Shown here: positions 33,346 through 45,210 of the stretch, piece by piece
Layout of the letters: each line of letters begins with the position of its first letter
How positions within the stretch are numbered: position 1 is the first letter of the stretch
NCBI RefSeq assembly: GCF_006716785.1
Contig: NZ_VFPQ01000002.1
Location: 62,001 to 126,000, forward strand
Source of the DNA: Thermopolyspora flexuosa
Lineage (GTDB): Bacteria; Actinomycetota; Actinomycetes; Streptosporangiales; Streptosporangiaceae
DNA length: 64,000 nucleotides
Reading direction: 5' to 3'
Notes under the pieces: model-generated
The model's input: only the letters and a program-made list of their open reading frames with translations
Told to the model about the DNA's origin: nothing
Databases searched by the model: none
Made by a program: the position numbers and the translations under genes

Positions 33346-33421
33346 GGGGCTTTAGCTCAGTTGGAAGAGCATCTGCTTTGCAAGCAGAGGGTCAGGGGTT
33401 CGAGTCCCCTAAGCTCCACCA
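33346..33421 (+). tRNA. tRNA-Ala(TGC), CCA encoded; AICE integration site
   Basis: A 76-nt tRNA. Acceptor GGGGCTT/AAGCTCC (one G-T), D arm TAGCTCAGTTGGAAGAGCA, anticodon loop TTTGCAA giving TGC, T arm GGGGTTCGAGTCCCC, and CCA encoded at 33419-33421. Its 3' half, from the anticodon loop to ACC, is the attL copy of the integrated element, so integration restores the gene. Confidence 0.97.
33377..33420 (+). repeat. attL, 44-bp att repeat
   Basis: Exact copy of the sequence at 45080-45123; starts TTTGCAAGCAG and ends AAGCTCCACC. It lies inside tRNA-Ala from the anticodon loop to the 3' end. Confidence 0.95.
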
Positions 33422-33426
33422 GGGAA

Positions 33427-33459
33427 AACGCCCCGATCCAGATCATGGACCGGGGCGTT
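33427..33459. terminator. hairpin between int and tRNA-Ala
   Basis: AACGCCCCG (33427-33435) and CGGGGCGTT (33451-33459) form a 9-bp stem. On the minus strand it is followed by TTTTCCC, so it should end int transcription; it may also stop tRNA read-through. Confidence 0.7.
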
Positions 33460-33480
33460 CGTGCCATTAACGTGCCATTA
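33460..33480 (+). repeat. two direct repeats, probable integrase arm-binding sites (left)
   Basis: CGTGCCATTA at 33460-33469 and again at 33471-33480, start-to-start spacing 11 bp. The second overlaps the int stop codon. The same pair with the same spacing lies near attR (44974-44994). Confidence 0.6.
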
Positions 33481-34647
33481 GCCTTCTGAGGCGGGCGGGC
33501 CGGGCAAGCTCCCGCCGTTCCGCTCCCGACGCTCGGCCTCGATCCGCGCGCTCAGCGCATCGGCGATCATCTGGTCGGCACGCCGCGTCGCGTGCTGGTA
33601 GATCAGCGCCGCCCGGTCACTGTCGTGCCCCATCCGCGCCTTGAGATCGGCCAGGCTCGCACCGCTCTGCGCGGCCAGCGTGTTCCCGGTGTGGCGAAGG
33701 TCGTGAAAGTGCAGGCCGGTCAGCCCCATTTCCTTCAGCGCCTCCGCCCATTTCGCCTCCCGCCGGAAATTGCCACCGCGGAGGAATCCGCCCCGCGCGC
33801 CGAGGAATACGAACGCGTCCGGCACGTCGTCGACGTACGTGGCGAGGTGCTCTTCCAGCGCCGGAATGATGACGGCCGGAATACTGACGATGCGTTTCCC
33901 GGCCCGGGACTTGGGCGGACCGAGGATCAGCTTTCCGCTGGTCAGCTCCACAAGCTGGTGGCGAACCCTCACCGTCCGCGCCGCCAGGTCGATGTCGCAA
34001 CGCTGCAGCGCGGTCACCTCGCCCCAGCGCAGGCTCGCGAAGGTGGCCAGCAGAATCAGCGCCCGGAAACGCCGATCGGCCATACGGTCGGCCAGCTCGA
34101 AGACCTGGGCGACGGAGAGAACGGGGCGTTCCGGCGTCTGCTCGTTGTCCGCCCCCTTGATCCGGCAGGGGTTGCGGCTCAATAGTTTGTCCTCTTCCAC
34201 GGCCGTCATCAGCACGGCCCGCAGCAGCCGGTACGCCTTGGCCGCCGTCGACACCGAAACGCCGCTGTCCAGTAGCTCACTCCGCCAGGTGCGGATCATC
34301 TGGGTGGTGAGCTTGCCGACCGCGACCCCGCCGAGGGTGGGCGCGATGTGGCGTTCCAGCAGCCACGTGTACAGATCGATCGTTTTCGGCCGAAGGCCGG
34401 GCCGTTCCTTGATCCACCGTCGTGCGTAGTCGCCGAGCCGGACCTTGCCACGGTCTGGGTCGGTCCAGTCACCGGAAATGATCTGAGCCTCGATCAGCGT
34501 GAGCGCGCGATCGGCGTCCGTCTTGGTGGCGTACGTGGTCTGGCCGGTCCTCATCCGTCCATCCGGGCCGGGGTAGCGAATCTGGTAGCGGCCCGAGGGC
34601 AGTTTGCGGATGTTGCCGAAACGCCGGTGACCCTTCTTATTCGCCAT
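33478..34647 (-). CDS. int: tyrosine-type site-specific integrase
   Basis: A 389-residue phage-type integrase. The N-terminal arm-binding AP2-like domain is at about 1-60 (MANKKGHRRFGNIRKLPSGR), a SAM-like core-binding domain at about 70-170, and the catalytic domain at about 180-360 with Arg207 (SLRWGE), His315-x-x-Arg318 (HDLRH) and Tyr350 (ALIYQHAT). It performs site-specific recombination between attP and the tRNA-Ala attB. ATG 34647 overlaps the xis stop (TGATG), so the two are translated together. Confidence 0.95.
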   Translation of the reverse strand: MANKKGHRRFGNIRKLPSGRYQIRYPGPDGRMRTGQTTYATKTDADRALTLIEAQIISGDWTDPDRGKVRLGDYARRWIKERPGLRPKTIDLYTWLLERHIAPTLGGVAVGKLTTQMIRTWRSELLDSGVSVSTAAKAYRLLRAVLMTAVEEDKLLSRNPCRIKGADNEQTPERPVLSVAQVFELADRMADRRFRALILLATFASLRWGEVTALQRCDIDLAARTVRVRHQLVELTSGKLILGPPKSRAGKRIVSIPAVIIPALEEHLATYVDDVPDAFVFLGARGGFLRGGNFRREAKWAEALKEMGLTGLHFHDLRHTGNTLAAQSGASLADLKARMGHDSDRAALIYQHATRRADQMIADALSARIEAERRERNGGSLPGPPASEG

Positions 34648-34853
34648 CAGGCAACGCCCCTCGCGACGTTCCCGGCCGTCAGCGGCGGCACCGTACCGGC
34701 GGCGACGAAGGCGTCCAAGGCGTGCTCGGTAATGCGCACGTGCCGCCCGACTTTGACGAACTCGATGCGCCGCTCTGCGACCAGACGCCGGATGAACCGC
34801 ACCGAGGTATTGAGCCGCTCGGCCGCTTCCTGGACGGTGAGAAGTCGCTTCAT
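34647..34853 (-). CDS. xis: excisionase-type helix-turn-helix protein
   Basis: A 68-residue MerR/excisionase-like winged helix-turn-helix protein (MKRLLTVQEAAERLNTSV, then RRLVAERRIEFVKVGRHVRI). Such proteins bend DNA and direct the integrase towards excision. It overlaps the rep stop by 4 nt (ATGA) and int by 1 nt, the normal rep-xis-int order of AICEs. Confidence 0.9.
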   Translation of the reverse strand: MKRLLTVQEAAERLNTSVRFIRRLVAERRIEFVKVGRHVRITEHALDAFVAAGTVPPLTAGNVARGVA

Positions 34854-36478
34854 GCCGCCCTCCCTCGATCGGCTGCCGACGTTGCCGAAAGATCTTGCAA
34901 GGTGCGTCCTTCGGCTCTGGCCTGTAGCCGTTGCATGGCCGCGCGCCAGCGCTGGCGCTCGGCGACGGCCCGCAGGAGGCGTACGGCGAGCGGTGGGACG
35001 TCCCGCTCGTTGCGGGAGACCGGGCGCCAGGTGTAGCGGTGCGGGTCGGCCGCCTCCTCCTCCGACAGCCCGAGGGCTTCCAGCACCCAGGCCCGCCGGT
35101 CTTGCCGGTGCTCGGCGAGGGTCTTGTTCGACCACTTGCGCGACACCAGCACGCGGCGGCCCGCATAGCCCAGGTGCTCGGGCTTGTGCGCCTTGCCCCT
35201 GCAGCAGCCGGGGCGCATCCCGGCGCGGGCGTTTTTGGGCTGGATGCCATAGCGCAGCCAGTTGGGGCAGCTCGGCGAGCAGGGTTCGTACCGCAGTGCC
35301 TCGACCAGCCTTGCGGCGTGCTCGGCCTGGGCCGCATCGGCCGGGTTGGCGGCGTCGCCGATGGACTTGGTCAGGTACTTGGACAGGTAGCGGATGCACT
35401 GGTCGGCATCTTTGGACCCGGCGAGCACGCCTTGGACATCCATCTGCGGGCCGAAGCGGATCACGTGCAGCGGCTTGGCGTCCGGGTCGGCGTCGAGCGC
35501 ATCCAGGGCCTGGTCCCAGGTGGGCAGCACCTCGCCGGTGTCCGGATCGACATAGCCGGCCTTCTCATCCCAGACCGGCAGGTGGTCGCCGTCGTAGACG
35601 ACCCGGTCGGCCGCAGGCCACCAGACCTGGTGATAGGTGGCCGCGGCGATCTGCCGGATCTCCGCCCGAGGCAGGGTGCCCCGGACGGCCATGTGCAGGT
35701 GCGGGGCAAGCCGCCGCTGCGGCTCAACGGTGGCGAAGTACTGCACGTCGTACCCGGCCACCCGGCGCAGGTTCTGCACGAACCGGTCGATCAGCTTGGA
35801 AAAGTGCAGCGCGTCCCGGGCAGCCCGCGCATAGTCGTACTCCTCCGGATCGACCGGGACGCCGTCGCGGACCCGGCCGTAGGAGGGGAGGGTGAGGGTG
35901 ATGAACATCGACGGCCGGTAGACCTTGCCGTCCGGCGCGGTGAACGTCCGGCCCAGCGTCGTGCTGGCCCGCTTGCGCTTGGGCAGGTCCGGCGCGTCCT
36001 GGCGGCGCCGGGTCGAACGGGTGCGCTTCGGCACCGACCGGCCTAGGACGTTGCCGCGCAGGCCCGCGGCGTTGATTTCGGCATCCAGGTCGGTGATCGC
36101 GCCGTCGAAATCTTCGGTGGGCTCGCCCGCCGCCTGGGCCGCATCCCGCCAGGCCTGCAGGTCGGCCCGCAGCTCGACCAGGTGCCGCTGATGCTCGCTG
36201 GGCTGATTCGGGGTGATGACCGGTTCGGTCTCCAGGTGCCAGCCCTCGCGGCACTGGGCCATGCGAAGCTGCCGGTTGCGCTTCGCGCAGGACGGGCACA
36301 CGGTCTCCAGGGTCGCCCCGCAGGGGACGTCGATGATCTCGGACTTGCCCGTGTGGGTGTCGATGCGCCGCATCGGCACCGGGCGGATGCACACCCCGTA
36401 GTCGATGGCGATGTGCTCGACGACCTCCCGGGCCAGCGGCATCGCCTGCCGTACCGACCGTGGCACCTGCAGGGTCAT
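34850..36478 (-). CDS. repSA: RepSA-family rolling-circle replication initiator
   Basis: A 542-residue replication initiator of the AICE type. The HUH metal-binding motif is PHLHMAVRG (residues about 259-267), and candidate catalytic tyrosines lie in CIRYLSKYLTKS. The N-terminal part has a zinc-ribbon-like VCPSCAKRN, and CSPSCPNW lies further on. It nicks the double-strand origin, probably within or near its own gene, to start rolling-circle replication of the excised circle. GTG/ATG start at 36478 overlaps the tra stop; xis and int follow with overlaps. Confidence 0.9.
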   Translation of the reverse strand: MTLQVPRSVRQAMPLAREVVEHIAIDYGVCIRPVPMRRIDTHTGKSEIIDVPCGATLETVCPSCAKRNRQLRMAQCREGWHLETEPVITPNQPSEHQRHLVELRADLQAWRDAAQAAGEPTEDFDGAITDLDAEINAAGLRGNVLGRSVPKRTRSTRRRQDAPDLPKRKRASTTLGRTFTAPDGKVYRPSMFITLTLPSYGRVRDGVPVDPEEYDYARAARDALHFSKLIDRFVQNLRRVAGYDVQYFATVEPQRRLAPHLHMAVRGTLPRAEIRQIAAATYHQVWWPAADRVVYDGDHLPVWDEKAGYVDPDTGEVLPTWDQALDALDADPDAKPLHVIRFGPQMDVQGVLAGSKDADQCIRYLSKYLTKSIGDAANPADAAQAEHAARLVEALRYEPCSPSCPNWLRYGIQPKNARAGMRPGCCRGKAHKPEHLGYAGRRVLVSRKWSNKTLAEHRQDRRAWVLEALGLSEEEAADPHRYTWRPVSRNERDVPPLAVRLLRAVAERQRWRAAMQRLQARAEGRTLQDLSATSAADRGRAA

Positions 36479-37899
36479 CGGCCCTCACCCCCACCCGCGG
36501 CGTAGGCGACCATGGCGCGGATGTCGGCGTCGGAGACGTAGGCGGCGCGCACCCGGATCGGGTCAGGGCTGGACTCCAGCCGCACATACCCCACGCCGGC
36601 CCCGCGCTCGGGGATGGGTGAGATGTGGTCGGCCAGCGCGCCCCGGTCGCGGGCACCCTCGCCGAGCACCATGTCCACCTGTTCTGACTCATCCAGCCGC
36701 AGGGCGATCTTGTCGGGGAACAGGTTGCGGATGCTCATGACCTCCTTGCGCGGGTCCTGCAGCGCGGCCAGCACGCCGACGCCGACGGCGCGGCCCTGGG
36801 TGGTGAGCGTGGCCAGGGCGGCGATGGTCCGGGCGCGAAGGTGCTTGTCGGACTGGTAGGCGGTCAGGAACGCGACCTCATCGACGATCACCAGGATGAA
36901 CGGGTCGGCGGCGGTCGGCTCGTGCACGCGGCGGACCCCGGCGTAGCGGTCGGCGCGCTGTTGCATCACCGCCACCGCGGCCTCAAGCAGGTCGGCGCAA
37001 TCGGCCGGGTCGGCCGCATAGCGGTCGAACAGCTCCCGGCCGTAGGACAGCTCCATGCGCTTGGGATCGAGCGCCCAGATCTGCACCAGGCCTGATCGCA
37101 TCGCGGGCAGCAGGCCACGGATCACCGACCACAGGTAGGAGCCCTTGCCCGAGCCGGTCGCACCCGCGATCAGCACGTGCGTGCCGTGCACCTTCAGCCG
37201 GTAGGGGGTGCCGTCCTCGCAGATGCCGATCTCCACCGGCCCCACCGAGGGGGTCTCGGGGATGGGTATGGCGGGCAGCGGAACCGCCAGCGGGTCCCGG
37301 CGCGGGAAGGTCAGGCGGAGCCGACCGGCCCGGGCAACCGACACCCGGCAGCCTGCCGCGCCGAAGCCGTGGGCCAGATGGTCGGCGCGGTCGGTCCAGT
37401 CCTTGACCGCTTGGCCGTGCAGCATCCTGACGGTGACGTGGTCGGCCCAGTCGTCGCAGCGGACCTTCAGCAGCGCGGGCAGGTAGTCGCGGCCGCGCAG
37501 GTGCCGCCCCAGACCGGAGACGACCATTACCGGCTGCCAGTGCCGCCGGTAGACCCACACCCAGCGCCACCAGGCCAGCAGCCGCCAGCCGACCAACCGC
37601 GCGAACGAGGAGCGGTGCAGGGTCGCCCACGCGGTCAGCGCCGAGGTGGTCATGCAGACGGCGGCGACGGTGACATGCCAGCCATACAGCCAGCAGGCCG
37701 CGACCGGTGTCGCCGCCACGGCCAGGGCGACCGGGTGCCGCCACACCAGGCGGGCAAGGCCCGCGACGAGCCGGTACAGCCAGATCGCCAGGGTGATGCT
37801 GACAGGGGTGTTCATGACGGCCGGGCGGAAGACCACGGCCGTGTCTGGGGTGGTGGAGACGAGGTTGCGGGCCTCGTCGCCAGGCAGTTTCTTGAACAT
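36475..37899 (-). CDS. traSA: FtsK/SpoIIIE-type conjugal DNA translocase (TraSA-like)
   Basis: A 474-residue membrane-anchored motor. Two to three membrane helices lie at about 25-95 (VSITLAIWLYRLVAGLARLV and following), then the FtsK-like ATPase with Walker A IAGATGSGKGSYLW (about 243-256) and Walker B ILVIVDEVAFL (about 333-343). Family members move double-stranded DNA between mycelia with a single protein. ATG 37899 is chosen because the frame upstream overlaps unrelated genes; GAGAGGA lies about 11 nt ahead. It overlaps repSA by 4 nt. Confidence 0.92.
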   Translation of the reverse strand: MFKKLPGDEARNLVSTTPDTAVVFRPAVMNTPVSITLAIWLYRLVAGLARLVWRHPVALAVAATPVAACWLYGWHVTVAAVCMTTSALTAWATLHRSSFARLVGWRLLAWWRWVWVYRRHWQPVMVVSGLGRHLRGRDYLPALLKVRCDDWADHVTVRMLHGQAVKDWTDRADHLAHGFGAAGCRVSVARAGRLRLTFPRRDPLAVPLPAIPIPETPSVGPVEIGICEDGTPYRLKVHGTHVLIAGATGSGKGSYLWSVIRGLLPAMRSGLVQIWALDPKRMELSYGRELFDRYAADPADCADLLEAAVAVMQQRADRYAGVRRVHEPTAADPFILVIVDEVAFLTAYQSDKHLRARTIAALATLTTQGRAVGVGVLAALQDPRKEVMSIRNLFPDKIALRLDESEQVDMVLGEGARDRGALADHISPIPERGAGVGYVRLESSPDPIRVRAAYVSDADIRAMVAYAAGGGEGR

Positions 37900-38813: not shown

Positions 38814-39545
38814 TTACTTGATCGGGTAGGCATCCTCAAGCTCGTGGCGATCGCCAGGAAGCACCGTCTCCACGACGACCCACGGCTTGCCGGTCGCCTC
38901 ACGGGCGACGGCGTAGACGGCCAGCAGGGCGGCAGAGGGCTTGACGCCGAGGAGCTTGCACTCCTCCCGAGTGGGGTTGCGGGCGGTCACGTGCTCGACG
39001 ATGTGGTCCAGCTGGATACCGGCCGCGGCTTCTACGTAGCGCCGCACCCCCTGCTTGAGATCGTCGGTTCCTGTCAGCGGGGTACCTTCGGCCACGTCGG
39101 CTGGTACCCAGGTGGAGGAAATCTCAGATGCTTCGTCATCGCGCGTGACGAGGATCTTACGAAGAACGACTGGTGACTTGGGCTCGATGTTGAGGTAGGC
39201 CGCGATGCGGTTGGGTGCCGGCACCGGCCCCGCCGATAGCAGCGAGCTTTCGACCTGAGCCTCTTTGCGGTCGAGCAGCTCCCGGCCCATACGAGTCTGC
39301 TGCCCGGAGGCGATGGCAGGACGGCCGCGCACGAAACGACCCTTGCCCTGATGGGTGACGATCCATCCCTGATCGCGGAGCACGCCAAGCGCCTTGACCA
39401 CCGTGGGCCGCGCCATGCCGAACTCCGCCATGAGCTGGTGCTCGCTCGGCAGCGGCGAGCCGGGCGGATACTCACCTGACTCGATGCGCCGTTCAAGCTC
39501 GGCGATCAGCTGGGCGTACTTGGGAGGAGTGTATTTGAATGACAT
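38814..39545 (-). CDS. korSA: GntR-family repressor, KorSA-like (HutC/UTRA type)
   Basis: A 243-residue regulator. An N-terminal winged helix-turn-helix (about 5-75, ELERRIESGEYPPGSPLPSEHQLMAEF split over the domain) is followed by a UTRA effector domain (about 95-240). The neighbouring pra gene and the four palindromes of one type, upstream of pra and upstream of this gene, match the KorSA circuit of pSAM2, in which the repressor blocks pra and itself. Effector unknown. Confidence 0.87.
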   Translation of the reverse strand: MSFKYTPPKYAQLIAELERRIESGEYPPGSPLPSEHQLMAEFGMARPTVVKALGVLRDQGWIVTHQGKGRFVRGRPAIASGQQTRMGRELLDRKEAQVESSLLSAGPVPAPNRIAAYLNIEPKSPVVLRKILVTRDDEASEISSTWVPADVAEGTPLTGTDDLKQGVRRYVEAAAGIQLDHIVEHVTARNPTREECKLLGVKPSAALLAVYAVAREATGKPWVVVETVLPGDRHELEDAYPIK

Positions 39546-40350: not shown

Positions 40351-41838
40351 ATGCCCGCAGACGCGGCGGAACCGGTTTCGATACCGCCCGATCTCTGGGA
40401 GCGCCCCGAAATGCTTGACGCTCTACAAAAACGGAATATCGGGCAGGTTTTCCGACTTGTCAGACAATATGCGGGCGTGAGTCAGACTCGCATCGGCATT
40501 GCGGTGAATCTCAGCCAGGGCAAGGTCAGCGAGATCATGCGCGGAACCGCCCAGGTCACCGCACTCGAAGTGTTCGAGCGGATAGCCGACGGGCTGCGCA
40601 TGCCGGACTCGGCCCGACTCGCTCTCGGCCTCGCACCCAGCTCATCCAGCCGTGCCCAGATCATCGGCACCGTCCCATCCCGCCGCGCTATCCCTTCTCG
40701 GGATGGGGTCCCAGCGGGACAACTCCTTAGCGTCGAAGGCGTGCTGTTGGGCTCGCGCCGAAGTGACGACCTGTGGGATATCGATCTTCTGACGCTGGCG
40801 TGGGTAGTGGGAAGGCTGGATTCTCGGATGGACCGACGTACGATGTTGCTCCTCGCGGTCGGAATGACCGCCGAAACCGCGGCTTCCATGGCGGATCCTT
40901 GGGAACGCCTTTCTCGCGCACTGAGAGGGCCGCAGGCGCTCGACGAGGAAACGATTGAACGGCTCGAAGCACGGACCATCGGCTTCCATCGGCTGGAATA
41001 CGTCCTGCCTGCCCGGGCCATCTACCAGGGCTTGACAACGCACATCAACGAGCTGAGCACCTTGCTTCAGAGCGGGCCGCCGGAGCGCTACCGGCGCCGC
41101 CTGGCGGCTACGGCCGGCGAAGCCGCGACGCTGGCATCCTGGATCGCCTGGGACCTCAACCAGCCTGCGCAGGCGGCCTCGTTCGAGCGCGTCGCCGCCC
41201 TGGCCGCGAAGGAGAGCGGTCACCACATCATCCAGGCATGCACCTATGCCTACCGTTCGTACGCGGTCGCGGGCCCCGAAGCCGTCGAATACATCCGGCG
41301 AGCGCAACAGTTCCTTCCAGCCAAGGGAGACGACGCGACTCGGGCATGGCTGCTGGCCCGCGAAGCCGAAGAACTGGCCGCGCTCGGCGACGGCCATGCC
41401 GCCGAGCTGCTGCAGCGAGCCGAGGAAGCCCACACTCGAGCCCGACCCCACCGAGAGCGGGCGTGGACCCGCTTTCTCGACCCCGGACGAATGGCCGCTT
41501 TTCAGCTCTCGACCTATGTACGGCTCGGCGATGAGCAGCGCGTGGCAGAGGCCAGCCAAGCCGCCCTCGCGGCTCTCGGTCCGGACGAGGATCAAAAGCG
41601 CGTGTCCGTCGTCTACGCCGACATCGCCCAGGCACAGCTTCAGCTCGGCGACGTGACAGAAGGAGTCGCCTACGCCCGCCGTGCCCTCGAAGCCGCCCAG
41701 CGCACCGAATCCACCTGGGGCATGCAGCACCTCACGAAGGTGGAGAAGGCCCTTGCGGCCCGGCCCGACAAGGCCGCGCGCGAACTGCTCGGGGACCTTC
41801 GTGCTAATCGCCGCGCGCTGGGTCTGTCTCCTGCCTGA
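40351..41838 (+). CDS. XRE-family regulator with TPR-like C-terminal region
   Basis: A 495-residue protein. The N-terminal helix-turn-helix is at about 30-95 (VRQYAGVSQTRIGIAVNLSQGKVSEIMRG shown in part), followed by a long all-helical region with TPR-like repeats (about 190-480). This architecture is common in actinomycete signalling regulators, including AICE and plasmid copies. ATG 40351 is chosen for the AAGGGGAAGGA just upstream; the frame opens at 40270. It is convergent with cutA, overlapping it by 35 bp. Confidence 0.83.
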   Translation: MPADAAEPVSIPPDLWERPEMLDALQKRNIGQVFRLVRQYAGVSQTRIGIAVNLSQGKVSEIMRGTAQVTALEVFERIADGLRMPDSARLALGLAPSSSSRAQIIGTVPSRRAIPSRDGVPAGQLLSVEGVLLGSRRSDDLWDIDLLTLAWVVGRLDSRMDRRTMLLLAVGMTAETAASMADPWERLSRALRGPQALDEETIERLEARTIGFHRLEYVLPARAIYQGLTTHINELSTLLQSGPPERYRRRLAATAGEAATLASWIAWDLNQPAQAASFERVAALAAKESGHHIIQACTYAYRSYAVAGPEAVEYIRRAQQFLPAKGDDATRAWLLAREAEELAALGDGHAAELLQRAEEAHTRARPHRERAWTRFLDPGRMAAFQLSTYVRLGDEQRVAEASQAALAALGPDEDQKRVSVVYADIAQAQLQLGDVTEGVAYARRALEAAQRTESTWGMQHLTKVEKALAARPDKAARELLGDLRANRRALGLSPA

Positions 41839-42136
41839 TCCACTCCAGGTAATCCGGCGTACCTCGCACGATCGGTACTGCCACGACCTGCGGCGCTTCG
41901 TAGGAGTGCAGCTCACGTACGCACGCTGCGAGGTCGTCAAAGCGATCAGTGGTCGTCTTCATGAGCAGCAACCATTCCTCTGCCTGGCGTACCTCGCCCT
42001 CCCACCAGTAGGTGGAGGAGATTTTGGCGACCACTTGCGCGCACGCGGCCAGGCGCCGGGATACGACCGCACTTGCGATCTGATCGGCCTCCTGCCGATT
42101 ACTCGTAGTGACGTGAACTTCAACCTCGGTGCTCAT
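41804..42136 (-). CDS. cutA: CutA-like divalent-cation tolerance protein
   Basis: A 110-residue ferredoxin-fold trimer-type protein. Diagnostic residues are in VVSRRLAACAQVV, STYWWEGEVRQAEEWLLLMKTT and LHSYEAPQVVAVPI (HxYExP motif). CutA was linked to copper tolerance in E. coli, but its general role is unclear. ATG 42136 fits the family length; ATG 42154 is possible. It lies between the XRE regulator and the NUDIX gene within the AICE, an unusual place for this gene. Confidence 0.9.
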   Translation of the reverse strand: MSTEVEVHVTTSNRQEADQIASAVVSRRLAACAQVVAKISSTYWWEGEVRQAEEWLLLMKTTTDRFDDLAACVRELHSYEAPQVVAVPIVRGTPDYLEWIRQETDPARGD

Positions 42137-42224
42137 AGTTCCCAAGAAGTCCATTCCGACTGAACTGTTCGTTGACAATGGCGCCGACGCCAGCGCCGCC
42201 GTATCGACGAAGTGGCCCGCTTGC

Positions 42225-42785
42225 TCAAGCGCGCTCTGAACTGAGCCACTCCCGGGCCGCATACAACCCGATCAACGTCCCCGACGTCCAGATGTCACCC
42301 CGGGCGATCATCTGTGGGATCTCGGCCATCGGGATCCAGCGGATCAGATCCGCCTCGACCTCCCCCGTCGGCTCACCGACGTACTCGGCGCCGCGAGCGA
42401 GAAACAGCAGGTGCTCGGCATCCACCAAGCCCGCGATCGGCTGGTAGGTGAGCAGCGGCTCCATCTGCTTGGGCCGGTACCCGGTCTCCTCCTCGACCTC
42501 CCGGGCCGCCGTGACAAGAGCATCCTCGCCGGCCTCCACCAGCCCGCCGGGCAGCTCCCAGCCCCACCGGTCGGCCACGAACCGGTGCCGCCACATCATC
42601 AGCACCCGATCGTCCTCATCGACCACGACCGCGATCGCCGCCCGTTTCAGGTGCACCACATGATGCTCGAACCGCTCACCCCCGGGGATCTCAACGTCGG
42701 CCAGCGCCAACCGGATCCACCGGTTGTCATAGACCAGCCGCTCCCCGTGCACGATCCAGCGCGTACGCTCGGTGTCCTCGCCCAC
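42225..42785 (-). CDS. NUDIX hydrolase (Pif-like)
   Basis: A 186-residue NUDIX protein of the ADP-sugar pyrophosphatase type. The Nudix box is complete: G-x5-E-x7-REVEEETGY within residues about 84-106. The family cleaves nucleoside diphosphates linked to another group. pSAM2 encodes the NUDIX protein Pif, which blocks redundant transfer between element-carrying mycelia; the same role is plausible here but not proven. It lies 88 bp upstream of cutA on the same strand. Confidence 0.88.
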   Translation of the reverse strand: MGEDTERTRWIVHGERLVYDNRWIRLALADVEIPGGERFEHHVVHLKRAAIAVVVDEDDRVLMMWRHRFVADRWGWELPGGLVEAGEDALVTAAREVEEETGYRPKQMEPLLTYQPIAGLVDAEHLLFLARGAEYVGEPTGEVEADLIRWIPMAEIPQMIARGDIWTSGTLIGLYAAREWLSSERA

Positions 42786-43371
42786 ACCGCGAAGCTAACG
42801 TCCCACGGCCCCGCCGTACACGCGTCCGCGCGATCACTGTGGCGGTTGCCGAATTACGCCTATACAGATCAAGGGCGGCGCTCCGCGCCGCCTCGCGGCC
42901 CTCCGCCGCTCGGCGGTCGGGCATGCGGCTCGCGGCCGGTCCCGGCCGCCGACGGCTCCGGGCCGCATCGGCTTTAGCCGCCATGCCCTGCCGCCGTAAC
43001 CGTGCATGCCTCACGATCGCCCCGTCATGGCCGGTCGCCGTAGACGGCTCGGGGCGATCGCCGGGCCAGGGCTTCGTTCCTCAGCCCTGGCCCACCGGAC
43101 ACCGGGATGCCTGTCTCGTCTGTGCGCCTGAGTGCTTCGCCGAGTCTCGAGATACCGTTGCGCTACGGTGTCCTTTGGTGTGCCGTACTCTCCCCATGCA
43201 GATACGCGGGAATCCCTCCCGACCGCCCAACTGCACCGAGTAGGGGCCCGGTCCGAAACAGCCTCAAATCGTGCTATTAAAATTCATGCTCGACTCGCCG
43301 GCAAAAGGGCTGACTGTGCATACCGGCTACCGGGCGGAAGTGAGCATCGTGGCGTGCGAGTTCGTTCATCG
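42786..43371. other. structured non-coding segment with five hairpins
   Basis: About 585 bp without a supportable gene. Perfect stems: GGCGGCG/CGCCGCC (42874-42892), CCGCC/GGCGG (42903-42916), GCGGCCG/CGGCCGC (42932-42949), CGATCGCCCC/GGGGCGATCG (43014-43023, 43051-43060) and GGGCCAGGGCT/AGCCCTGGCCC (43063-43073, 43083-43093). A 15-codon ORF (43198-43245, MQIRGNPSRPPNCTE) follows TACTCT-like promoter elements. The GC content falls sharply after about 43250. A replication or transfer origin or a structured RNA are possible readings. Confidence 0.5.
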
Positions 43372-44694
43372 TTAGTCACCTTCTTTATCTTTTGACTCCG
43401 AGGGAAGAGATTTATCTAACACCGCATTCACCCGCTCTGAGACGCTGACACCTCCGCTAGCTAGGGCGATAACTGCAGCTGCTACCAGAGTGATTCGAAC
43501 ACTCTGAGCTGCTTGCTGAGAGTTATCAAAAACGGGGAGTAGCGGCAGGACGAAACCCATACTGGCGAGCACTATTGCTGGCCACAAGCGAGCCGCAAGT
43601 CGACGAACCCTCTCTGCAAGAGTAACCTCTCCCGCCGCCTCCCATAGCTGTTTAATACTACCGTCGCTCCATAACTCGACAATCTTCAGTATCTCGACCG
43701 AGATCTTTTCAAGGTCTGTACCGTTAGAGCTAGCGGCAAGGCTGGCCTTGTGCTTCCGAATCTCATTAGCTAAGCAAACACCGATACGTCGAGCATCTCG
43801 GCGAGCTGTTATGTCCCATAACGGAACCCGTCGAACGGCGAACCGTTCTGCTTCACGGCCCAACCGTTCTAACGCTGCAATAAGAGCCTTGATGTGTCGT
43901 GGATAGGACCACCGTCTGCGCTCGCGGCACCAATGCGACCAGTATGCGACCTCGAGAAGCCCGAGAATAATCCTATCTAGAGGTCCAGGAGCTGAGTGAC
44001 GACGCCTTTCTCGATAATATCTGATACCTATAATTATATTCACCATCAGGACTGCCACTATATGAAATAGCGCGATCAGAAATACCATGTCGGGAGCCCT
44101 GCTCATATCGGGGATATCGAGCAGGGCTCCCGCCATTAAGAGCAGAGATACAGCAAAGAAGAAAAGCAGCATTCTCCAATAGAAGTACATCGAGGAAGGG
44201 GTGTTAAGGTCTAGGTGCGATGTGCAGACATCAACGAAGCGGACGTAAGGTGTCGGAATCATGACGAGCAGCAGCAATGACCCCGCAAATACTAGGGAGG
44301 TCAATATGAGTGCCCCAACGGTCGACGCCTCGCGAAGAAACGTAATCACCATGGCCCCTACCGCCCCGAGTAGCAGGATAACGTAATTTAGGGTTAGCAC
44401 AACGGATGCCGAACCGTGGAAAATGAATTGCTTGTAGACGGCACCTCGCATTGCTGTCGCGAGCAGGCGAAGCCGTATCACTGGGTCGGTCAGCTCTGGC
44501 AGGCCATCTATGTAGCCGATTATCGTCTGCGATTCTCTGCGAACTCTGCCAGCTACTCGTATATACGTCCAATATTTAGAGAATGTTATCTGAGCGCGAA
44601 GCGCATTTATAATTTTCCAGGTATAGGCATGTTTTGATATCATCCAGACTGCCGATCGGATACGTGATAGGTACATAGGTTGATGATGCAACAC
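43372..44694 (-). CDS. low-GC multi-pass membrane protein, AICE cargo
   Basis: A 440-residue protein I do not recognise. An N-terminal basic region is followed by about four membrane helices (about 95-120, 126-150, 168-190, 200-225), a cytoplasmic, Arg-rich helical region (about 230-365) and two further helices near 370-415. The codon use is much richer in A/T than all neighbours (many AGA, ATA, TTA codons), showing recent acquisition. It sits between the element's regulatory genes and attR, where AICE cargo lies. A phage-defence or exclusion role is speculation from position alone. Confidence 0.75.
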   Translation of the reverse strand: MLHHQPMYLSRIRSAVWMISKHAYTWKIINALRAQITFSKYWTYIRVAGRVRRESQTIIGYIDGLPELTDPVIRLRLLATAMRGAVYKQFIFHGSASVVLTLNYVILLLGAVGAMVITFLREASTVGALILTSLVFAGSLLLLVMIPTPYVRFVDVCTSHLDLNTPSSMYFYWRMLLFFFAVSLLLMAGALLDIPDMSRAPDMVFLIALFHIVAVLMVNIIIGIRYYRERRRHSAPGPLDRIILGLLEVAYWSHWCRERRRWSYPRHIKALIAALERLGREAERFAVRRVPLWDITARRDARRIGVCLANEIRKHKASLAASSNGTDLEKISVEILKIVELWSDGSIKQLWEAAGEVTLAERVRRLAARLWPAIVLASMGFVLPLLPVFDNSQQAAQSVRITLVAAAVIALASGGVSVSERVNAVLDKSLPSESKDKEGD

Positions 44695-45079: not shown

Positions 45080-45123
45080 TTTGCAAGCAGAGGGTCAGGG
45101 GTTCGAGTCCCCTAAGCTCCACC
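45080..45123 (+). repeat. attR of the AICE and att copy 2
   Basis: Identical over 44 bp to 33377-33420; the flanks differ immediately on both sides. Confidence 0.95.
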
Positions 45124-45128
45124 GGACA

Positions 45129-45210
45129 AAATCCCAGGTCAGCGACACAGCGCTGACCTGGGATTTGATCTTTCCGGAGCTATTCAAGGCTTCCGTGCCC
45201 GTTGTGTGCC
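45129..45210. repeat. left-end-like structure after att copy 2: hairpin plus spaced GTGCC pair
   Basis: AAATCCCAGGTCAGCG (45129-45144) and its complement (45151-45166) form a perfect 16-bp stem with a T-run on the minus strand. GTGCC then occurs at 45195-45199 and 45206-45210, 11 bp apart. This mirrors the hairpin and arm pair at the int end of the AICE and suggests the left end of a second, now int-less element. Confidence 0.5.

What the first reader, a model, noticed from the sequence alone, without database searches (positions are those of the whole stretch)
43250..44694. Low-GC multi-pass membrane protein as AICE cargo
The 440-residue gene uses A/T-rich codons unlike everything else in the window and stands alone beside attR. 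Its layout (four helices, long Arg-rich cytoplasmic region, two helices) is not one I know. Cargo in this position often serves the host or excludes phages and other elements. It is the best candidate here for an undescribed function.
Basis: partly seen in the sequence, partly recalled or inferred. Interest (0 to 1): 0.6.

Follow-up and report, generated by a model that had tools for sequence, protein, structure and literature searches.

The report
Undescribed membrane protein, AICE cargo
A gene carried near the edge of a mobile DNA element in a soil bacterium encodes a six-helix membrane protein of an unnamed family; its job is unknown, and keeping out rival mobile DNA or viruses is only the best guess.

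Summary
A 440-aa frame (43372-44694, minus) lies alone between the NUDIX gene and the right repeat of an 11.7-kb pSAM2-type AICE in a tRNA-Ala gene. Its GC, 51%, is the lowest of 43 window frames and below all 237 sampled host frames (mean 73%). Hydropathy and an AlphaFold model (pLDDT 82) give four TM helices, a cytoplasmic four-helix domain and a TM hairpin. No Pfam, NCBIfam, PADLOC or PHROG family matches it, and no solved fold at E 0.001.

It belongs to a sparse actinobacterial family: 19 intact relatives aligned with it, six apparent remnants. AICE-type genes lie near 5 of 24 relatives' loci against 0 of 28 control stretches. Conservation sits in the Arg-rich cytoplasmic bundle and last hairpin, hardly in TM1-4. 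One fact argues against a simple 'recent foreign gene': the four closest copies, in one clade and with saturated silent sites in the two pairs measured, all keep 51-52% GC3.

Function is unproven; membrane-anchored exclusion or defence is my best guess (0.35).

The parts
43372..44694 (-). the 440-aa six-TM membrane protein gene (the finding)
44002..44415 (-). TM helices 1-4 (residues 94-231); poorly conserved in sequence
   Evidence: AlphaFold helices and hydropathy; 1 of the 32 conserved columns falls here
43651..43989 (-). cytoplasmic Arg-rich four-helix domain (residues 236-348)
   Evidence: related stretch in a TPR-like protein of another genome
43456..43620 (-). C-terminal TM hairpin (residues 359-413) with LPxLPxF-type turn
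33346..33421 (+). intact tRNA-Ala(TGC), insertion site of the AICE
33377..33428 (+). left direct repeat (attL)
45080..45131 (+). right direct repeat (attR)
33478..34674 (-). tyrosine integrase
   Evidence: PF00589 5.6e-14
34647..34850 (-). excisionase-like HTH protein
   Evidence: PF12728 2.1e-14
34850..36478 (-). RepSA-type replication initiator
   Evidence: PF20199 9.6e-105
36475..37896 (-). FtsK/SpoIIIE transfer protein (Tra)
   Evidence: PF01580 2.4e-13
38814..39545 (-). GntR/UTRA regulator (KorSA-like; that name is recalled)
42225..42785 (-). NUDIX protein (candidate Pif-like conjugal immunity factor)
   Evidence: PF00293 1.8e-20; Pif as NUDIX protein: PMC3218068, passages

Best explanation
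Shown: the gene is accessory cargo at the attR edge of a complete pSAM2-type AICE and encodes a membrane protein of an undescribed, sporadic actinobacterial family. Modelled: both ends are in the cytoplasm; four TM helices, a cytoplasmic Arg-rich four-helix bundle, a TM hairpin. Inferred (not shown): it acts alone as a membrane-anchored barrier or defence protein. The bundle would bind a signal, incoming DNA or a phage or transfer protein on the inner face of the membrane, and the conserved C-terminal hairpin would respond, blocking entry or opening the membrane. It would thus protect the element's host cell, complementing the NUDIX (Pif-like) immunity gene next to it.
For: AICE gene set and repeats. 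Copies in other elements: a RepSA/FtsK/DUF2637/integrase AICE, a RepSA/FtsK AICE, beside an integrase with DUF3987, with a relaxase-like and a DUF2637 gene, next to ParA/ParB, on two Streptomyces megaplasmids. Window int/rep/tra proteins hit 5 of 24 relatives' loci, 0 of 28 controls from the same genomes and 0 of 20 stretches of the window's genome (Fisher 0.016 for the first two). No constant partner gene seen in the listed loci (read by eye). Of 32 conserved columns, 20 lie in residues 232-358, 7 in 359-413, 1 in 94-231. No ATP-loop or metal motif shared by the 20 members in the three patterns tried. One relative stands beside a GajA/GajB-like pair, one beside a NACHT protein.
Against: No direct functional evidence. 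No PADLOC match. The two defence neighbours were chosen by eye without a control; most loci have none recognised. 19 of 24 relatives' loci show no AICE-type gene in the strict test, and one lies beside an AzlD transporter gene in ordinary-looking DNA. A four-helix bundle is a generic fold, and poor alignment of TM1-4 lowers their conservation score.
Confidence: 0.35

Rival explanations
1. A conjugation helper: a Spd-like membrane protein that aids spread of the element through the mycelium, with the basic bundle holding DNA at the septum.
For: Multi-TM protein with a basic cytoplasmic domain on AICEs, beside a relaxase-like gene, and on mobilizable megaplasmids. [quoted passage not shown]
Against: Not next to tra; no similarity to the DUF2637 protein of the Planotetraspora AICE (hhalign probability 0.1), which carries that gene as well as a relative of this one; several relatives lie in loci without tra, rep or integrase.
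Confidence: 0.2
2. A channel, transporter or sensor that serves the host (ions, metabolites, stress), moved about by mobile elements.
For: Six TM helices, purifying selection, chromosomal copies with host-like GC such as L066 and L072, sub-threshold VIT1 match of one relative at the hairpin (E 0.00099, cut-off 28.1 bits, score 19.4).
Against: TM1-4, where a path would lie, are the least conserved part; no transporter family passes its cut-off in 20 members; sporadic (1 of 346 phylum-wide genomes, the window's own).
Confidence: 0.25
3. A silenced toxin-like or addiction cargo: AT-rich composition keeps the gene under Lsr2 silencing, and it acts only when silencing is lifted.
For: The four closest copies share GC3 0.51-0.52; the genome has four Lsr2-domain matches; Lsr2 binds AT-rich DNA in Streptomyces (PMC6584129, abstract start in listing).
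Against: No antitoxin-like partner noticed; more distant relatives have ordinary GC up to 0.75; Lsr2 binding was not tested.
Confidence: 0.1
4. Neutral passenger on the way to decay.
For: Six apparent remnants beside 20 intact members; AICE cargo decays often (42% against 7%, PMC9513070, passages).
Against: dN/dS 0.21-0.49 in five pairs of relatives; the window frame is intact.
Confidence: 0.1

Closest known systems
Pif, the NUDIX conjugal immunity factor of pSAM2
   Same: Carried by the same kind of element; blocks redundant transfer between carriers (PMC3218068, passages), the role proposed here.
   Different: Pif is a NUDIX protein; this is a six-TM protein without that domain. The window AICE has its own NUDIX gene.
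Spd/DUF2637 spread proteins of Streptomyces elements
   Same: Multi-TM accessory proteins of AICEs and plasmids (for DUF2637 in the Planotetraspora AICE).
   Different: No sequence similarity by hhalign; different position.
WP_331744038.1, hypothetical protein of a Streptomyces sp. NBC_01136 megaplasmid
   Same: Named relative: 29% identity to the Planotetraspora copy over 135 residues, 41% to L066 over 138.
   Different: Annotated only as hypothetical protein; neighbours are a LigA and a TetR gene.
DUF6594 (PF20237) and VIT1 (PF01988)
   Same: Weak matches at the bundle and hairpin in two relatives each (DUF6594 0.097 and 0.23; VIT1 0.00099 and 0.022).
   Different: All below the curated cut-offs; the window protein itself matches neither.

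Membership tests
AICE (the carrier element) | site-specific integrase, pSAM2-type Rep, FtsK/SpoIIIE Tra | tested here: met
AICE (the carrier element) | direct repeats from a tRNA insertion site | tested here: met
AICE (the carrier element) | excision and conjugal transfer | not testable with these tools
   needs the strain
Known anti-phage defence families (PADLOC 2023) | match to a PADLOC model | tested here: not met
   0 families up to E 10; only the window protein was scanned, not its relatives
SpdB-like DUF2637 | sequence similarity to DUF2637 | tested here: not met
   hhalign probability 0.1, E 0.45, against one DUF2637 protein; no DUF2637 match in 20 members
VIT1 | score over the curated cut-off of 28.1 bits | tested here: not met
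   best of 20 members 19.4 bits
DUF6594 | score over the curated cut-off of 30 bits | tested here: not met
   best 13.0 bits
Any fold in PDB | shared fold beyond a generic bundle | tested here: inconclusive
   Foldseek 0 at E 0.001; VIA-align Z 10.6, rmsd 2.5 over 85 residues to a designed four-helix bundle, within the generic range stated by the tool

The most novel reading that the evidence does not exclude
A new, stand-alone class of membrane-anchored exclusion or defence protein that actinobacterial mobile elements pass around: an Arg-rich cytoplasmic four-helix sensor wired to a C-terminal TM hairpin. In one Streptosporangiaceae clade the gene is held at about 51% silent-site GC, perhaps by selection to keep it under Lsr2 silencing until an invader lifts it.
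Probability: 0.12. Interest if true: 0.75.

Novelty: new variant of a known kind. Interest (0 to 1): 0.42.

Why it matters
AICE cargo is poorly understood, and multi-TM proteins of unknown family are usually left as 'hypothetical'. Here a family is delimited with named relatives, a confident domain layout, and a conserved cytoplasmic core, so the function can be tested in a laboratory Streptomyces. If it excludes phages or other elements it would add a membrane-based barrier to the one AICE immunity factor I found described in the two papers consulted (Pif). The constant GC3 in a diverged clade is a testable puzzle about how low-GC cargo persists in high-GC hosts.

Tried and rejected
Searches that found nothing or only noise: the search for related loci with the single protein in genome contigs (9 stretches, none confirmed) and with A2 in viral contigs (155 stretches, none confirmed); phages tblastn with the window protein; plasmids tblastn with the window, L064, L061 and L073 proteins; PDB sequence search with A4 (best E 0.041, TM noise); viral fold library (none at E 0.001); PHROGs (no match below 0.05).

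Hits set aside: G294 and G144 (by eye an LpqB-like and an MFS frame), G251 (by eye a frame antisense to a GlmS-like gene), G587 (725-aa frame, E 5e-4, not read). G268 shares the bundle only, with a TPR-like N-terminal part (probability 91, E 1e-6), and is kept out of the family count. Remnants counted apart: G118, G151, G842 (read), G559 (three pieces), G700 and G729 (known only from the rows).

Limits: in the class, phylum and family genome scans only 4-7 best first-look candidates per genome were scored (all), so absences are soft. The broader context count (any hallmark 10 of 24 against 1 of 28; non-transposase 6 of 24 against 1 of 28) used references taken partly from those same loci; one search used the window's proteins only. 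Controls were the 28 of 39 fetched stretches that are 15 kb or longer. The att pair was proved for the window AICE and the second AICE of the genome only; none was found for the Planotetraspora or L073 elements, so 'edge' there rests on the tRNA next door. Promoter and terminator scans were at chance.

Rejected ideas: DUF2637 spread protein, ferritin-like or ATPase motifs, known defence family.

Full report
What is there. A 440-aa frame with a GTG start runs from 44694 down to 43372. It lies inside an 11.7-kb element bounded by tRNA-Ala(TGC) and a 52-nt direct repeat. The element has a tyrosine integrase, a small HTH protein, RepSA, FtsK/SpoIIIE Tra, a GntR/UTRA regulator, an HTH protein, CutA1 and NUDIX: a complete pSAM2-type AICE. 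The genome has a second RepSA AICE beside tRNA-Ala(CGC), also with repeats (88%), an integrase and FtsK. Its 1-kb windows have GC 0.64-0.71, so it has no such low-GC gene, and the family occurs once in the genome. The gene is therefore accessory cargo.

Composition. GC 0.511 stands clear of 43 window frames and of 237 frames sampled elsewhere in the genome. I checked whether this marks recent arrival. The four closest copies (the window, Planotetraspora mira, Nonomuraea dietziae, [Actinomadura] parvosata; named through by matching contig lengths) form one clade (support 100/99) and share GC3 0.51-0.52 in stretches of 67-71% GC. Silent sites are saturated in the two pairs measured (pS 0.81 and 0.77). 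The composition has thus persisted, or been renewed, through deep divergence. Relatives elsewhere range from 0.56 to 0.75 GC. I cannot tell whether selection, for example for Lsr2 silencing, or repeated arrival from an unsampled pool explains it.

Family. Genome searches gave matches in 8 of 297 genomes (E 0.01), 9 of 345 (E 0.001), 6 of 394 class-wide, 16 of 249 and 3 of 22 in two further bacterial families (E 1e-4), and 1 of 346 phylum-wide, the window's own. These sets overlap and include the hits set aside in Tried and rejected. Twenty intact members, the window's included, were aligned. The window's family is that of Planotetraspora, Streptosporangiaceae; the other two families are unnamed. 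Two Streptomyces megaplasmids carry relatives, one annotated 'hypothetical protein'.

Anatomy. AlphaFold on the 20-row alignment gives pLDDT 82.3 and pTM 0.71, all helical. Helices at residues 94-120, 125-145, 166-192 and 200-231 match hydropathy peaks; 238-258, 265-285, 295-321 and 325-343 form a cytoplasmic bundle; 359-385 and 393-412 a hairpin; the positive-inside rule puts both ends and the bundle in the cytoplasm. Of 32 columns with one residue, or one charge, in at least 15 of 20 rows, 20 fall in residues 232-358, 7 in the hairpin region, 1 in TM1-4 and 3 before them, one of which is the start methionine. A related bundle occurs in a TPR-like protein of another genome. No solved structure matches beyond a generic four-helix bundle.

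Context of relatives. In the Planotetraspora element the gene lies between the integrase (9072 against 7859 in L011) and tRNA-Arg, with RepSA, FtsK and DUF2637 upstream. In L073 it lies between tRNA-Pro and an integrase. L013 is a RepSA/FtsK AICE, with a repeated tRNA-like stretch 3.2 kb away. L014 has an integrase 7.6 kb away and a NUDIX gene. L063 has a relaxase-like gene (24.2 bits, just under the 24.6 cut-off) and DUF2637; L068 has ParA/ParB next door. With the window's own int, rep and tra as probes, 5 of 24 relatives' loci and 0 of 28 controls are hit (Fisher 0.016). The 24 include four remnants or broken copies and the TPR-like locus. Nineteen of 24 show no such gene, so many copies are not evidently on AICEs. 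L064 stands beside a GajA/GajB-like pair, L065 beside a NACHT protein, and the G118 remnant near a TIR protein; these were chosen by eye.

Reading. A lone, sporadic, element-borne membrane protein under purifying selection, with conservation in an inner-face bundle and hairpin, fits an exclusion or defence role better than a transporter whose path would be conserved, or a spread protein tied to tra. That is inference; I put it at 0.35. Literature searches for AICE cargo, Pif, spread proteins, AICE with phage defence, DUF6594 and Lsr2 (listings; passages of two papers) showed no description of this family; they did not search by sequence, and subscription papers are mostly missing.

Noticed in passing
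41804-42262 (-) and 42225-42785 (-): A CutA1 gene overlaps the NUDIX gene inside the AICE; an unusual pairing that may be co-expressed with the candidate immunity factor.
   Followed up: no
L143 9475-19378 (G000:C1, about 211.5-221.4 kb): Second RepSA AICE of the same genome, in tRNA-Ala(CGC), with integrase and FtsK and no low-GC cargo.
   Followed up: partly
L038:9188-10789 (-): TPR-like protein sharing the cytoplasmic bundle with this family (hhalign probability 91).
   Followed up: partly
L064:10104-13605 (+): GajA-like and GajB-like genes 439 bp downstream of a relative.
   Followed up: partly
L034:13518-17444 (-): 1308-aa protein with a PADLOC PDC-M28B match, about 4 kb from a 65-aa remnant of the family.
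   Followed up: no
L068:8345-8611 (-): 88-aa LexA DNA-binding domain frame next to a relative and ParA/ParB genes.
   Followed up: no
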